Origin: an uncultured Burkholderiales bacterium
GTDB lineage: Bacteria > Pseudomonadota > Gammaproteobacteria > Burkholderiales > Burkholderiaceae_C
DNA: 56,111 bases
Direction of reading: 5' to 3'
NCBI GenBank assembly: GCA_903828695.1
Contig: CAIKNE010000099.1
Coordinates: 1-56,111, forward strand
Positions 47,780-56,111 of this stretch are shown here, piece after piece. The notes under the pieces were generated by a model that saw only the letters and a list, made by a program, of their open reading frames with translations, did no database searches and was not told the DNA's origin. The translations under genes were made by a program, and so were the position numbers. Every line of letters begins with the position of its first letter. Position 1 is the stretch's first letter.

Positions 47780-49645
47780 ATGCTAGAAAATTACATTTCA
47801 AAAATATTTTGTGCTCGCCGCTTCCTCATTGGACTGGCAAGTACGGCTTTTTGTTGCCTCATTTTGTCTGGGTGCGGAGGGGGAGGAGCGGGCGCGGCGT
47901 GTGTCGCTGCGGTCGGTGCTTTGGGGGGGAATGCTTGTGCAAACGCTGCTAACAAAAACAACAACACGCCGGCGCCGCCGCCACTAACGGCTGGAAACTT
48001 GCAGTACACCGTTAATGAGAACCAAACTTTAAATAATTACTTAACGGTCAACAATCCAAACAATATTGCGCTGACCTACACCATCTTAAATCAGCCCAGT
48101 AACGGAATGGTCACACCTGCGACTTCCACGACGGGTGCCTTTACTTACACACCCATTGGCAACTTTCATGGGCTGGATCAATTTACGTACAACATCAGTG
48201 GTGGTGGACAGATTTCAAACCCGGGTATTGTCAACGTAAGCGTTGTACCGCAGTTCATCGCTCCGGTTGCAAACGGCGCTACTTTCAACTTGCCGTCCTC
48301 TAATCCTTACACTGACCTTGTATCGGGCTACGATTTCCAAGGTTATCCTCTCACATTTAGTGTGGTCAATACCACTTCCTACGGCAGTTTGAACTTAAAT
48401 ACCAATACCGGCGTATTCACCTACACACCTAATCCCGGGACCACCTCTGACAGTTTTAAGTTTTTGGTCAATGACGGCACTGCGGACTCGAGAATTGCTA
48501 CAGTTAATTTAATTGTCCATGCAACAGCTAGCCCGACCATCACTTGGGGCTCTCAAGGTATCCTAGGTATTTATAACGACTTCACCCCGCCCAACATCAA
48601 CAATGTCAATATTCAACTGAATGCGACTTGTAGCAACGGTGGGCCCGTCACATACCAAGTCGGCGATCTCCCTTTGCCCCCTGGACTCACCATGACGAGC
48701 TCGGGACAAATTGCAGGGGCTACCACTCCGATTGCCGCAGGCTCATTGACTCCCATGAGTTATGAGATCAGTGCGATCGCATCTTGCCCCGGATCGAACC
48801 CAACTTTTAATACCAATCCAATGCAGATCTTGGTGTTGCCCCCTAACATCATTCAAATTAGTTCAGCGGGTGCAGTGATTTCCGGATTAGGTGTATGTCC
48901 AGTAGGAGCTACAGTTTCACCCATTTCAATTGGCACAACTTGTAGCGGCCCTGCGGTTGCCACCGCTGGCCAAATTACTGCGGCTCCCGCTGCTTACACT
49001 ATAACCACCCCTGCATGGTTGTCCAATTTCTCAGCTATGGTGATTGGCGGGGGCGGGGGCGGCGCTGCGGGGGGGCAGGTGTACCTCGGATCTGGCGGGG
49101 GTGCTGGCGGATACCTTTACTACAGTAATATTCCATTAACGCCTGGAAACAGTATTGCTGCGTTAGCCGGTGCTGGTGGAGTGGGCGGGGCGGTCGCAAC
49201 CCTCACCACCACTGATGCGGGGGGGGCGGGTTTAGCATCGTGGGTTGCGCAACTTGCCAACCAAGGCACGACCTTACTCAGTCAAATCACAGCTCAAGGC
49301 GGCAAAGGTGGAACTGGGTCTGGTGCAAGCGGCGGGGCAGAGCCTGGCTCGAATGCACTGCCTCCCTACACATCCATCGTCTCTTATGCGGGCGGCACTG
49401 TTGTGCTTGGACAAAGTGTGGGGGGTGGGGGCGGCGCTGCAGGTGCGGGCCAAACTCCGGCGGGTGGCCCAGGTGCTGCAAACAATATCACCGGAACTTT
49501 CATAACTTATGCAACCGGCGGCTCTGGTGGATCAGCAGGGATACCCGTACCCGTGTCTAAAGCAGATGGTAACGGCGGTAACGGTGGAACGATCAGTGGC
49601 GCCGGTGTAGCCGGAGACCCCGGTGTGGTCATCATTCGCTTTTAA
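47780..49645 (+). CDS. Large lipoprotein with Ig-like domains and a glycine-rich C-terminus
   Basis: Surface or periplasmic lipoprotein, 621 aa. Signal peptide and lipobox LSGC at about residues 14-33, then a Gly/Ala/Cys patch. About 70-160 and 165-255 look like cadherin/Ig-like modules (LTYTILNQPSNGMV with FTYTPIGNFHGLDQFTY; LTFSVVNTTSYGSLNL with FTYTPNPGTTSDSFKF). A third at about 260-360 carries LPLPPGLTMTSSGQIAG, as in putative-Ig (He_PIG) domains. From about 400 a glycine-rich segment (MVIGGGGGGAAGG, GSGGGAGGYLYY, GGVGGAV) resembles the glycine-rich domains of phage tail fibres and some adhesins. Likely adhesion or envelope display, function unknown. Start ATG 47780 follows a weak AGGTAG. 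Confidence 0.7.
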   Translation: MLENYISKIFCARRFLIGLASTAFCCLILSGCGGGGAGAACVAAVGALGGNACANAANKNNNTPAPPPLTAGNLQYTVNENQTLNNYLTVNNPNNIALTYTILNQPSNGMVTPATSTTGAFTYTPIGNFHGLDQFTYNISGGGQISNPGIVNVSVVPQFIAPVANGATFNLPSSNPYTDLVSGYDFQGYPLTFSVVNTTSYGSLNLNTNTGVFTYTPNPGTTSDSFKFLVNDGTADSRIATVNLIVHATASPTITWGSQGILGIYNDFTPPNINNVNIQLNATCSNGGPVTYQVGDLPLPPGLTMTSSGQIAGATTPIAAGSLTPMSYEISAIASCPGSNPTFNTNPMQILVLPPNIIQISSAGAVISGLGVCPVGATVSPISIGTTCSGPAVATAGQITAAPAAYTITTPAWLSNFSAMVIGGGGGGAAGGQVYLGSGGGAGGYLYYSNIPLTPGNSIAALAGAGGVGGAVATLTTTDAGGAGLASWVAQLANQGTTLLSQITAQGGKGGTGSGASGGAEPGSNALPPYTSIVSYAGGTVVLGQSVGGGGGAAGAGQTPAGGPGAANNITGTFITYATGGSGGSAGIPVPVSKADGNGGNGGTISGAGVAGDPGVVIIRF

Positions 49646-53378: not shown

Positions 53379-53415
53379 CCATTGATTGGCGTGACTTTGT
53401 TAAAGTAGATTAGCC

Positions 53416-53445
53416 CAAACCAAACCAAACCAAGCCAAACCAACC
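53416..53445. repeat. Imperfect 5-bp tandem repeat, six units of CAAAC type
   Basis: Six consecutive units of CAAAC (fourth unit CAAGC, sixth CAACC) between the alcohol dehydrogenase and the repetitive protein gene. The rest of this convergent gap has no terminator I can see. Confidence 0.75.
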
Positions 53446-53467: not shown

Positions 53468-56111
53468 CTAGATTGTCGGTTTGTCCTTATTCGGCCCCAC
53501 TTGGGTGAGCGTTTGAGCGTTAGTCGGGTTCGCTAAGTTGTTGACAATCACAGGTGTGGCTGCAACCACCACAGATGTAATGATAGGGTTGTACTGTGTG
53601 AGCGACTGTGTCAATGATTGCGCAAGTGCGCTGCTTAGCGCTTGCGATGAATCACCATCAATGCTTACGTTTGAAACAATACCCTGAGAGCTACTAGGGG
53701 CTGCTACCCCAGAGCCTGATACCCCAGGCCCTGAGAAGACAGCAGATGCAGCCCCCATTGGAGATGAGGTATAGGCATTGAGGGCCGCTGTGAGTTGGGA
53801 GGTCGAGCTCAGTGTGCCACTTGTGGAGGCCAACCAAACATCCGCCATCTCATGGGTGCTGCCGTCAGTGGTCGTGTAGGAGGAGATCATTCCTACCGTG
53901 TTTCCATTGCTATTTGTATTGACAACCGATGCGCTGAGATTCAAAGACTTGATGTTTAGTTCCGAGAGGGTGAACAAACTACCTATTGGCGTAGAGCCAT
54001 CGATACCCGTGTCTACCCAGACCTGCAGGTGATTGAAAATAGGGTCACTTGCACTGATCTCTGTTGCGCCAGGCGTGGTGAACGCCGCAAGCGCAGCGAA
54101 CCCATTCGCTGCGGTCTGTCCGTTGGGCAAAATGGTTGCAGATCCAAAGAGCTCAGAACCATTTGTAATAGAAGTTGCCCCTGTGGGTAAATCAACCAAG
54201 AAACCTTCTCCAGGTGTGATCCAACCCACATAGGAAGCTTGACCCGTATTGCCAAGATCAAAGGCGACCCCGGATTTGCCGATTTGCTGGGTCTGTATAC
54301 CAGGATCACGGCCCTTTGAGGTCAATACATTGAACGCTTGCGAGCTCAAGCCCGCAACGTTTGCGGTGCTGAGTGCCTCTATTCCACTGAGGTCCAGGAC
54401 CAGTGGTGTGAGCGTCTTGAGTACGGAGGCCTGTGTGGTGGTGAACGCTGAAAGCTGAGCTGAGCTGAGCGCACCTAGTTGATGGTCGCTAAAGCCCATC
54501 ATGGCACTGGTTGTGAGTAATGCTACGTCAGCCGTGCTGATCTGCGCCAACTGATTGGTGCTCAACACTGAGATTTGCGTTGAAGTTAAACCGCTGACCT
54601 GTGTGGTCGTAAGGGCTGCAATCTGAGGCCCTTTGAGGCTGACAATTTGACTAGAAGTGAACTGTCCTAATTGCTGTGAGGTGAGCACAGAAAATGTAGA
54701 TGTGAGGAGTCCTGCAATTTGCAAGGTGCTAAGAGCAGCGATGCCAACACTTGATATTGCATCTAATTGTGCAGAGCCGAGGCTGTTTAACTGTTGGAGA
54801 GATAAAGCCACTAAGTCCTGGGTTGCCAAAACGCCTACTTGCTGTGTGCTCAGTCCGGGTAAGTTCGCTGTTGTTAACCCTTTCATCTGTGCAGTGCTTA
54901 GGTAGGGCAAACTCAGGGGCGAGATGGCGCCAACTTGGGCGGAACTGAGGACCGTCAATTGTGAGACGCTAAGTCCCAGTATTTGAGTTGAATTCAACAG
55001 ACCAACTGTGGTTGTGCTCAAGGACTGAAGTTGCCCTGCGCTCAGGCCCACGAGTTGTTGGGAGGTTAGAGCAGTAAACTGCGAGCTAGATAGTGCCCCA
55101 AGCTCTGTGGTGGTGAGACTGGCGAGTTGTGCAGAACTAAGCTGTGTAATTCCCGTGCTCGTGATCTCCTGCAAAACCGTACTGCTCAGTGCATTGAGTT
55201 GAGAGCCCGATAGGCCCCTGATCTGCGTGCTGGTCAGGTTTTGAATATCTAGTAGTGGGATCTGATTAAGGGTGCTTGGGGTTAGTGCATTTAACGCTGA
55301 TGACGTTAAATAACCAATCTGCGTTGACATGATCGATTGAACCCCAGAGCTGGTGAGGCCAACAATACCTGCAGGCGAGAGCGCAGCAATCTGACTCGGT
55401 GTCAACAACGGAATCTCTGAGGTGGTTAAGGCGCCAATAAAGTCAGAGCCAAGGCCACTGATTTGCTTGGTGCTCAGTTGTACCAAATCAGCTGTTGGGA
55501 TGATCGCAACATTGGAGGAGCTCAGTGCAGCAAACTGATCAGTCGTTATGCCCTGTATTTGATTCGTAGTGATTTGGGTGACCAAAGCACTGGATAAGGA
55601 GGATATTGCTGCACTATTGAAGGCTGCAATTTGTTTGGACGTGAGTGCTTGGAACTGCGTGCTGGATAACTGATTAACAGTAGTGGTGCTTAGATTTCCG
55701 ATTTGAACCGTTTGAAGCGATGCCATTGCATTTGTTGTGATCAAAGCCCAATTGGTCGTACTTAAGCTGCTGAGCTGAGACCCCGAGAGTCCTTGTAATT
55801 GCTTAGTGCTTAGAACATTAAACTGCGTCGTACTTAGTAACTGAACCTGTACGGGGGTGAGTCCCGCTAACTGAGATGAGCCCAAACCACTGAACGCGGA
55901 GGCTGAAATGGCGGCCATAGAGTCGGTGCCCAAGGAGGCCAAAGTCGCAGTCGTCAGGCCCGGTATTTGGTTGGAGGTCAGGCTTGCGAAGTCAGCCGTA
56001 CTGAGCTGCAAGCCATACGAGCTCAGGGCGACTTCGAGCGCGGTAATTTGATTTGAGCTCAAGGAGGCAAATTGACTTGGGGTGAGTGCGCTCACATTAC
56101 TCGAGCTCAAA
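53468..56111 (-). CDS. Octapeptide-repeat protein with ELFG-type calcium-binding-like C-terminus (5' end outside window)
   Basis: Carboxy-terminal 880 residues of a larger protein; the frame runs off the right edge and no true start is visible (the first in-frame TTG at 56110 is only a Leu of a repeat). Residues 1-595 of the visible part are about 74 eight-residue repeats, consensus L-[ST]-[ST]-x-Q-[ILVF]-x-x, with one 11-residue exception. Then comes a region with LVLDLSGIEAL, GVAFDLGNTGQASYVGW, NGSELFGSATILPNG, FAALAAF, FNHLQVWVDTGIDG and LNIKSLNLSASVV, the layout of the ELFG/EF-hand-like module of big secreted adhesins. A Ser/Gly-rich tail ends in NKDKPTI. No Cys. Likely secreted, perhaps by a type I system; no transporter is adjacent. 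Confidence 0.75.
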   Translation of the reverse strand, partial: LSSSNVSALTPSQFASLSSNQITALEVALSSYGLQLSTADFASLTSNQIPGLTTATLASLGTDSMAAISASAFSGLGSSQLAGLTPVQVQLLSTTQFNVLSTKQLQGLSGSQLSSLSTTNWALITTNAMASLQTVQIGNLSTTTVNQLSSTQFQALTSKQIAAFNSAAISSLSSALVTQITTNQIQGITTDQFAALSSSNVAIIPTADLVQLSTKQISGLGSDFIGALTTSEIPLLTPSQIAALSPAGIVGLTSSGVQSIMSTQIGYLTSSALNALTPSTLNQIPLLDIQNLTSTQIRGLSGSQLNALSSTVLQEITSTGITQLSSAQLASLTTTELGALSSSQFTALTSQQLVGLSAGQLQSLSTTTVGLLNSTQILGLSVSQLTVLSSAQVGAISPLSLPYLSTAQMKGLTTANLPGLSTQQVGVLATQDLVALSLQQLNSLGSAQLDAISSVGIAALSTLQIAGLLTSTFSVLTSQQLGQFTSSQIVSLKGPQIAALTTTQVSGLTSTQISVLSTNQLAQISTADVALLTTSAMMGFSDHQLGALSSAQLSAFTTTQASVLKTLTPLVLDLSGIEALSTANVAGLSSQAFNVLTSKGRDPGIQTQQIGKSGVAFDLGNTGQASYVGWITPGEGFLVDLPTGATSITNGSELFGSATILPNGQTAANGFAALAAFTTPGATEISASDPIFNHLQVWVDTGIDGSTPIGSLFTLSELNIKSLNLSASVVNTNSNGNTVGMISSYTTTDGSTHEMADVWLASTSGTLSSTSQLTAALNAYTSSPMGAASAVFSGPGVSGSGVAAPSSSQGIVSNVSIDGDSSQALSSALAQSLTQSLTQYNPIITSVVVAATPVIVNNLANPTNAQTLTQVGPNKDKPTI
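54326..56110 (-). repeat. About 74 tandem 24-bp units encoding octapeptide repeats
   Basis: Every eight residues begins with Leu (sometimes Ile or Phe), followed by Ser/Thr-Ser/Thr, a variable residue, usually Gln, an aliphatic or Phe, and two small residues: for example LSTKQISG, LTSTQIRG, LSSAQLAS. Phase holds from the right edge to LSSQAFNV with a single 3-residue insertion (LEVALSSYGLQ). DNA copies are diverged rather than identical, so the array is old and held by selection on protein. Confidence 0.92.

What the first reader, a model, noticed from the sequence alone, without database searches (positions are those of the whole stretch)
54326..56110. Very long, strictly phased octapeptide-repeat array with an N-cap-like motif
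About 74 consecutive units of exactly 8 residues, L-[ST]-[ST]-x-Q-[ILVF]-x-x, run to the window edge, so the full array is longer. An S/T-x-x-Q pattern is a classic helix N-capping box, so each unit may be a short helix in a solenoid; a beta-roll with one turn per one or two units is the competing model. DNA units have diverged while Leu, Ser/Thr and Gln persist, which suggests selection on structure. I do not recognise a named fold for this period, and this is my best candidate for something undescribed.
Basis: partly seen in the sequence, partly recalled or inferred. Interest (0 to 1): 0.75.

Follow-up and report, generated by a model that had tools for sequence, protein, structure and literature searches.

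The report
Secreted helical solenoid of octapeptide repeats
A freshwater bacterium carries a very long protein made of some 180 tiny eight-residue helices, a repeat type that already has a name, which is probably exported from the cell; its relatives often sit beside a sugar-attaching enzyme, and its repeat number hardly changes between species.

Summary
The array is real: 74 octapeptide units in one minus-strand ORF that is cut by the window edge. The repeat is not undescribed: it is Pfam PF20080 (ALTTAQ repeat, E=2e-69), and a solved chain named HeliScrew4 matches it. AlphaFold2 predicts one short helix per unit (mean pLDDT 90, no strands), so the helix N-cap guess holds and the beta-roll does not. 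The array is followed by a domain homologous to the FrpC self-processing module, with Thr/Ser-Pro where FrpC has its cleaved Asp-Pro (22 of 22 copies scored, window included) and several Ca ligands lost, then a tail shared with paralogues. Intact orthologues are about 1,715 aa. Their arrays show no whole-unit indel at 42-59% identity. Paralogues sit beside a type I secretion operon. Arrays lie within 10 kb of GT41 (O-GlcNAc-transferase-type) genes in 11 of 22 genomes, against 0.9 expected. Most likely: a T1SS-exported, length-conserved helical surface or extracellular solenoid, possibly O-glycosylated. Export, glycosylation and function are inferred.

The parts
54407..56110 (-). ALTTAQ octapeptide array, residues 1-568 of the part in the window (N-terminal half lies on another contig)
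   Evidence: PF20080 E=2.3e-69; unit segmentation; AF2 model of residues 5-570
56039..56047 (-). the only register slip in the array (3 residues); aligned without a gap in L025, L026, L028 and L029
54383..54406 (-). residues 569-576, start of the SPM-like domain by comparison with FrpC; preceded by Thr (T-P) where FrpC has Asp-Pro
   Evidence: FrpC cleavage site from PMC7078468
54302..54382 (-). residues 577-603, three further octapeptide units and a short linker inserted in the SPM-like domain; absent in C143, L036, L038, L039
53834..54301 (-). SPM-like domain (homologue of the FrpC self-processing module), residues 604-759
   Evidence: phmmer 6sjw 1.4e-26 over residues 604-762; profile A4 6.4e-31
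53471..53833 (-). C-terminal tail (121 aa), Ser/Thr/Asn/Ala-rich, with two motifs seen by eye in the 23 tails printed; candidate T1SS signal

Best explanation
This is the C-terminal half of a ~1,715-residue extracellular solenoid. About 180 octapeptides each form a ~1.5-turn alpha-helix: S/T N-cap, Q at N3, Leu and Ile as a hydrophobic staple. They stack into one continuous rod-like superhelix. A C-terminal domain homologous to the FrpC self-processing module, but without its Asp-Pro cleavage site and with several Ca ligands missing, plus a shared tail, act as the folding and export end. The protein leaves the cell by the type I secretion system encoded beside its paralogues. It stays uncleaved and serves as a length-defined surface or secreted fibre or adhesin. 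In many lineages, probably here too, Ser/Thr of the array are O-glycosylated by a GT41 enzyme before export. Shown: repeat family, homology of the C-terminal domain, missing cleavage Asp, constancy of unit number among the orthologues compared, purifying selection, gene linkage of paralogues. Predicted: helical fold. Inferred: export route of this copy, glycosylation, biological role.
For: PF20080. AF2 all-helical with mean pLDDT 90.3. SPM homology 6.4e-31. T/S-P in place of D-P in 22 of 22 copies (5 own; 17 others). In 61 genomes of the genus (own included), C39-domain ORFs of 461-738 aa occur in 5, each within 0.6 kb of an SPM-like domain on the same contig; these are 5 of the 6 genomes with SPM-like hits at E<=1e-50 and 0 of the other 55 (Fisher 1e-6; the cut was set after seeing the list). 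ABC domains were confirmed by Pfam in own C113 and L035. Gene order array-ABC-HlyD-GT41 in L035. Window tail motifs shared with the T1SS-adjacent proteins (by eye). GT41 within 10 kb of an array in 11 of 22 genomes against 0.9 expected, and within 1 kb of the array in 8 of 19 annotated plasmid loci. No whole-unit indel among four orthologues at 42-59% identity. Array without Cys and with few charges.
Against: The window gene itself is not beside a T1SS or GT41 gene; it lies between YgfZ-like and Fe-ADH genes. In 11 of the 22 genomes no GT41 was found within 10 kb of a listed array. G033, G006, G015 and G023 have arrays, but no SPM-like hit and no C39 hit, so T1SS of this type is not the only context. 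GT41 near flagellin may serve flagellin. Three C39 hits in ORFs of 321-327 aa (G030, G365, G375) have no SPM-like domain beside them in the lists. Six Shinella-type loci, Thioclava, Polaromonas and Rhizobium SL42 have no recognised GT41 nearby (SL42: only one flank fetched). One flagellin-linked relative (L049) differs in unit number. No signal-peptide or T1SS-signal predictor was run.
Confidence: 0.6

Rival explanations
1. Flagellar-system cargo: ALTTAQ solenoids are exported by the flagellar type III apparatus and decorate or cap the filament; the SPM/T1SS copies are a derived branch.
For: Arrays lie within about 7 kb of flagellin in at least 6 of the 18 genomes searched (G000:C52, G006, G015 twice, G023, G027:C55, G033 twice) and beside flagellar genes in Rhodovastum and Pseudorhizobium. 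G006, G015, G023 and G033 have no SPM-like hit and no C39 hit. The complete flagellin-linked proteins (L046, L047, L049, L050) have, by eye, a short N-terminal leader before the repeats.
Against: The window copy starts directly with repeats (on C101), carries the SPM-like domain and tail, and is not flagellin-linked. T1SS adjacency is clear for its SPM paralogues. Linkage among congeners is partly shared synteny, so not independent, and no null was run. Whether the arrays of G000:C52 and G027:C55 end in an SPM-like domain is unknown (contig edges).
Confidence: 0.15
2. Active clip-and-link protein: the SPM-like domain cleaves on Ca binding and couples the array to a lysine of another protein, as in FrpC.
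For: Clear homology. W451, W519 and D579 equivalents are kept in 14 of 14 rows, D521 in 13, E474 in 13, D510 in 12. A conserved Asp, as Asp-Pro in the window, L025, L026 and L027, lies 27 residues before the GW motif.
Against: The residue before the homologous Pro is T/S in 22 of 22. Of the same 14 rows, D456, D462, N466, D478 and N523 equivalents are kept in 0, N464 in 1, D525 and E532 in 2, D503 in 3, D499 and N501 in 6. The other Asp is D-T in L028, D-A in L029, and not seen outside this orthologue group.
Confidence: 0.05
3. Beta-roll or beta-solenoid of one or two units per turn (ice-nucleation-like or RTX-like).
For: Period 8 equals one InaZ-type unit (recalled); some relatives are annotated 'ICE nucleation protein'.
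Against: AF2: helices throughout, no strands. Unit composition is unlike the recalled InaZ motif. No GGxGxD.
Confidence: 0.03
4. Neutral low-complexity or disordered repeat without structural role.
For: Low sequence complexity; Ser+Thr 31%.
Against: dN/dS 0.08. Unit-by-unit orthology: 42-58% identity at offset 0 against 22-30% at other unit offsets for L026, L028, L029. Few indels for its divergence. pLDDT 90.
Confidence: 0.03

Closest known systems
Pfam PF20080 ALTTAQ_rpt
   Same: The array scores 229 bits against a cut-off of 26.4, with 22 matched stretches; consensus [ST][ST]xQ[ILV]AAL in 20 of 21 arrays segmented with a window-derived matrix, the other with Ala second
   Different: The Pfam model covers 38 residues of repeat only; the architecture with an SPM-like domain, T1SS and GT41 linkage and constant unit number are not part of it
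HeliScrew4 (PDB 9zem, solved chain)
   Same: Octapeptide repeat, alignable over 108-110 residues, E=1.5e-18 (profile) and 9.8e-12 (single sequence)
   Different: 120 residues only; often Pro after the N-cap where the window has Ser/Thr. Its coordinates and origin were not seen; it did not appear in the fold list
FrpC self-processing module (6sjw/6sjx)
   Same: Homologous domain, 152 aligned positions, E=6.4e-31; both Trp and D579 kept
   Different: Cleavage Asp replaced by T/S, most Ca ligands of sites 1, 3 and 4 lost, site 2 kept in under half of the rows; no RTX repeats; in the window three repeat units are inserted near its start
ARM/HEAT and mesothelin-type helical solenoids

Membership tests
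PF20080 ALTTAQ repeat | score above Pfam gathering cut-off | tested here: met
   229.2 bits against 26.4
FrpC-type self-processing module | sequence homology over the domain | tested here: met
   E=6.4e-31 with profile A4
[quoted passage not shown]
   T/S-P in 22 of 22; site from PMC7078468
FrpC-type self-processing module | four EF-hand-like Ca sites | tested here: not met
   of 14 rows: D462 0, N464 1, N466 0, E474 13; D499 6, N501 6, D503 3, D510 12; D521 13, N523 0, D525 2, E532 2; D456 0 (Glu in 14). D421 equivalent S/T in 5 of 5 own copies
FrpC-type self-processing module | Ca-dependent cleavage | not testable with these tools
   needs protein
RTX proteins | GGxGxD nonapeptides | tested here: not met
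   0 in the window protein and in the 18 locus ORFs examined
Type I secretion substrate | T1SS genes adjacent | tested here: inconclusive
   beside SPM paralogues in 5 of 61 genomes of the genus, own included, not beside the window gene
Type I secretion substrate | secretion by T1SS | not testable with these tools
   needs a knockout
ARM/HEAT solenoid | fold match clearly above unrelated helical repeats | tested here: inconclusive
Leucine-rich repeat | LRR fold and motif | tested here: inconclusive
   weak LRR sequence hits; AF2 model has no strands
Ice-nucleation octapeptide repeat | AGYGSTxT-type unit (recalled) | tested here: not met
   unit-position counts are dominated by L/I/V, A, A/G, L, S/T, S/T, S/A/T, Q

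The most novel reading that the evidence does not exclude
ALTTAQ arrays are a class of O-glycosylated, single-helix-per-octapeptide 'rulers': very long (up to about 800 units) rigid solenoids whose unit number is under selection, exported by T1SS or the flagellar apparatus after modification by a dedicated GT41 glycosyltransferase, with a non-cleaving descendant of the FrpC module as C-terminal folding cap in one branch.
Probability: 0.3. Interest if true: 0.75.

Novelty: new variant of a known kind. Interest (0 to 1): 0.5.

Why it matters
ALTTAQ proteins reach 6,361 aa in this genus, yet searches of the held library for ALTTAQ, HeliScrew, PF20080 and GT41 with type I secretion gave no paper evidently about them (the seven text hits have unrelated titles and were not opened). 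Their link to T1SS and to GT41 genes gives a directly testable route for export and O-glycosylation in a culturable species, Cereibacter sphaeroides 2.4.1. The near-absence of unit gain or loss at 41-64% identity in the groups compared is unexpected for a tandem-repeat protein and suggests selection on length, though diverged DNA units would also slip less. The degenerate module suggests that the FrpC fold is used without clip-and-link.

Tried and rejected
Pfam hits other than PF20080 (CAAP1, Phage_TAC_7, LRR_EndoS) were judged composition artefacts of the repeat: CAAP1 passes its cut-off in 3 and Phage_TAC_7 in 1 of the arrays scanned, over short stretches, and LRR_EndoS in none. LRR hits in the PDB were judged harmonics of period 8 (24 = 3 x 8); this was not tested further. 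Asp-Pro at residues 602-603 as an alternative cleavage site: Asp is kept in 6 of 6 of this orthologue group but Pro in 4 of 6 (window, L025, L026, L027), so it was set aside. Ser/Thr at unit position 6 as a marker of glycosylation: median 0.80 in 24 arrays with GT41 within 10 kb in the fetched stretch against 0.67 in 44 others, p=0.016, but with counterexamples both ways (linked L083 0.36, second array of L050 0.26; unlinked L104 0.91, L097 0.84-0.90) and uncorrected relatedness. It is not used as evidence. Two antisense rows (L087 minus, L088 plus) were dropped before that count, and 'unlinked' includes short contigs where a GT41 gene would not be seen; L070, with an annotated O-GlcNAc transferase cut by the edge, counted as unlinked.

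VIA-align gave only middling Z; 9zem is not in its list. Foldseek 'pdb' never started. Literature: searches were search listings. PMC7078468 was seen as outline and passages, PMC12538545, PMC2628672 and PMC10035497 as passages; no paper was read whole.

Full report
Observation. The minus-strand ORF 53468-56110 is open at the window edge and holds 74 octapeptide units with one 3-residue slip. The strict pattern is found 19 times against 0.31 expected (maximum 3 in 2000 shuffles). Identity at lags 8, 16, 24, 32 and 40 is 0.24-0.30 against 0.04-0.13 at the other lags from 4 to 39.

Completeness. The window is C99:1-56111 of a 3.02 Mb genome in 161 contigs. Its end shares exactly 141 nt with the end of contig C101; among the ends of the array-bearing contigs compared, no other pair overlapped. 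The orthologue L025, on one contig with the same neighbours (YgfZ-like and Fe-ADH), has an ORF of 1717 aa. L026, L028 and L029 have 1715, 1711 and 1729 aa. So about half of the protein lies outside the window.

Family. Pfam names the repeat: PF20080, E=2.3e-69. By sequence the closest solved chain is 9zem HeliScrew4. PF20080 is found in 23 of 61 genomes of a kinship sample (own included), all 23 among the 37 of the same genus and none of the 24 from other families of the order; in 14 of 299 sampled Pseudomonadota genomes, 5 of 181 genera; and 57 plasmid records match the array at E<=1e-10.

Selection. Window against L025: dS 0.356, dN 0.028, ratio 0.08 over 565 codons; the other nine pairs have saturated dS. 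Mean conservation by unit position is Leu 0.74, Gln 0.68, hydrophobic 0.57, least at position 7, 0.22. In the array, five of the six pairs of the four full orthologues were scored: 0.7-2.1 gap events per 1000 residues at 42-59% identity, none of 8 residues. YgfZ-like, esterase and thioesterase neighbours at 54-70% identity show 0-14.5 per 1000; HolB, Tmk, MltG and Fe-ADH at 67-88% show none. The control is thus only partly matched, as no neighbour is as diverged as the array. Unit number is also constant in the array part of a T1SS-adjacent group (64-70%), in six Shinella-type proteins (60-64% identity, one 8-residue gap in L101), in one pair at 83% and one at 97%, and in the flagellin-linked pair L046/L050 at 41%. 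L049 against L046, at 34%, differs by many whole units.

C-terminal domain. Residues 604-759 are homologous to the FrpC self-processing module. In FrpC this module cleaves Asp414-Pro415 in Ca and links the Asp to a lysine (PMC7078468, outline and passages). Here the residue before that Pro is T or S in 22 of 22 copies: 5 in this genome and 17 in related loci; L041 is cut and was not scored. Many Ca ligands are lost while E474, D510, D521, D579 and both Trp are kept in 12-14 of 14 rows. The domain is therefore predicted not to clip. It is followed by a 95-137 aa tail in which, by eye, two motifs recur in all 23 tails printed.

Secretion. In own C113, L030, L031 and L035 the order is array-SPM gene(s) then a C39-ABC ORF; in L030, L031 and L035 an HlyD-like ORF and a TPR protein follow. 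In L035 Pfam confirms ABC, HlyD and GT41, and a GT9-type gene lies next on the other strand. Of 61 genomes of the genus, drawn from a larger group, 15 have an SPM-like hit at E<=1e-5 and 6 at E<=1e-50; 5 have a C39 ORF of 461-738 aa, all among these 6 and all within 0.6 kb of an SPM-like domain. Three further C39 hits are ORFs of 321-327 aa (one in a genome with weaker SPM-like hits) and were not counted. Fisher p=1e-6 with the post-hoc cut. These genomes are related, and several are the source of the L loci, so p is a guide only.

Glycosylation link. GT41 lies within 10 kb of an array on the same contig in 11 of 22 genomes, against 0.90 expected by random placement (maximum 6 in 20,000 trials). 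Positions were typed; the hit lists were truncated, the genomes were chosen for having arrays, and they come from five genera. Of 19 annotated plasmid loci looked at, chosen for rank, annotation and diversity and not at random, 8 have a GT41 within 1 kb of the array (Pfam; distances) and one more an annotated O-GlcNAc transferase (L070). A TPR protein in L105 was not scanned with Pfam. Four have T1SS genes (L068, L069, L070, L076), two flagellar genes (L072, L073). Six Shinella-type loci (including L078), Thioclava, Polaromonas and Rhizobium SL42 have no GT41 recognised by annotation or, for those whose array was printed, by the profile; of SL42 only one flank was fetched. GT41 also glycosylates flagellins in some bacteria (recalled), so GT41 beside flagellin-linked arrays is ambiguous; T1SS-GT41-array loci without flagellin are less so.

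Verdict. What is new here, to my knowledge and the searches named, is the context: a non-cleaving FrpC-type cap, T1SS and GT41 linkage, and constant unit number. Function is inferred.

Noticed in passing
G023:C29 (L052, L053): An ORF of 6361 aa built of ALTTAQ units (567 segmented in its first 4679 aa), beside a GT41 gene and a flagellin fragment.
   Followed up: partly
G011:C3:69503-69976: An SPM-like domain hit (E=6e-8) inside a 13,784-aa open frame.
   Followed up: no
L046, L047, L049, L050, L051, L052; own C52: ALTTAQ arrays lie beside flagellin genes, some of them very large (ORFs up to 1419 aa); G006, G015, G023 and G033 have no SPM-like hit at all.
   Followed up: partly
L068 (C. sphaeroides 2.4.1 pA) and others: ALTTAQ arrays are annotated in public records as 'ICE nucleation protein' or 'heme utilization protein', probably wrongly.
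   Followed up: no
window 53468-56110 and own paralogues: Pfam CAAP1 and Phage_TAC_7 pass their cut-offs on some ALTTAQ arrays, a likely source of false annotation.
   Followed up: no
L078 (Roseateles sp. XES5 plasmid): Array 62% identical to, and as long as, a Shinella one, with some Shinella-like neighbours; the record may be mislabelled.
   Followed up: no
CP117533.1 (Spiroplasma plasmid): Weak array-like tblastn match (22.5% identity, E=2e-17), possibly composition only.
   Followed up: no
window 53415-53443: Short tandem repeat, unit CCAAA, 5.8 copies, just downstream of the array gene.
   Followed up: no
window 47780-49645: Protein with bacterial Ig and glycine-rich domains; similar-sized ORFs lie in the same place in L026-L029.
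   Followed up: no
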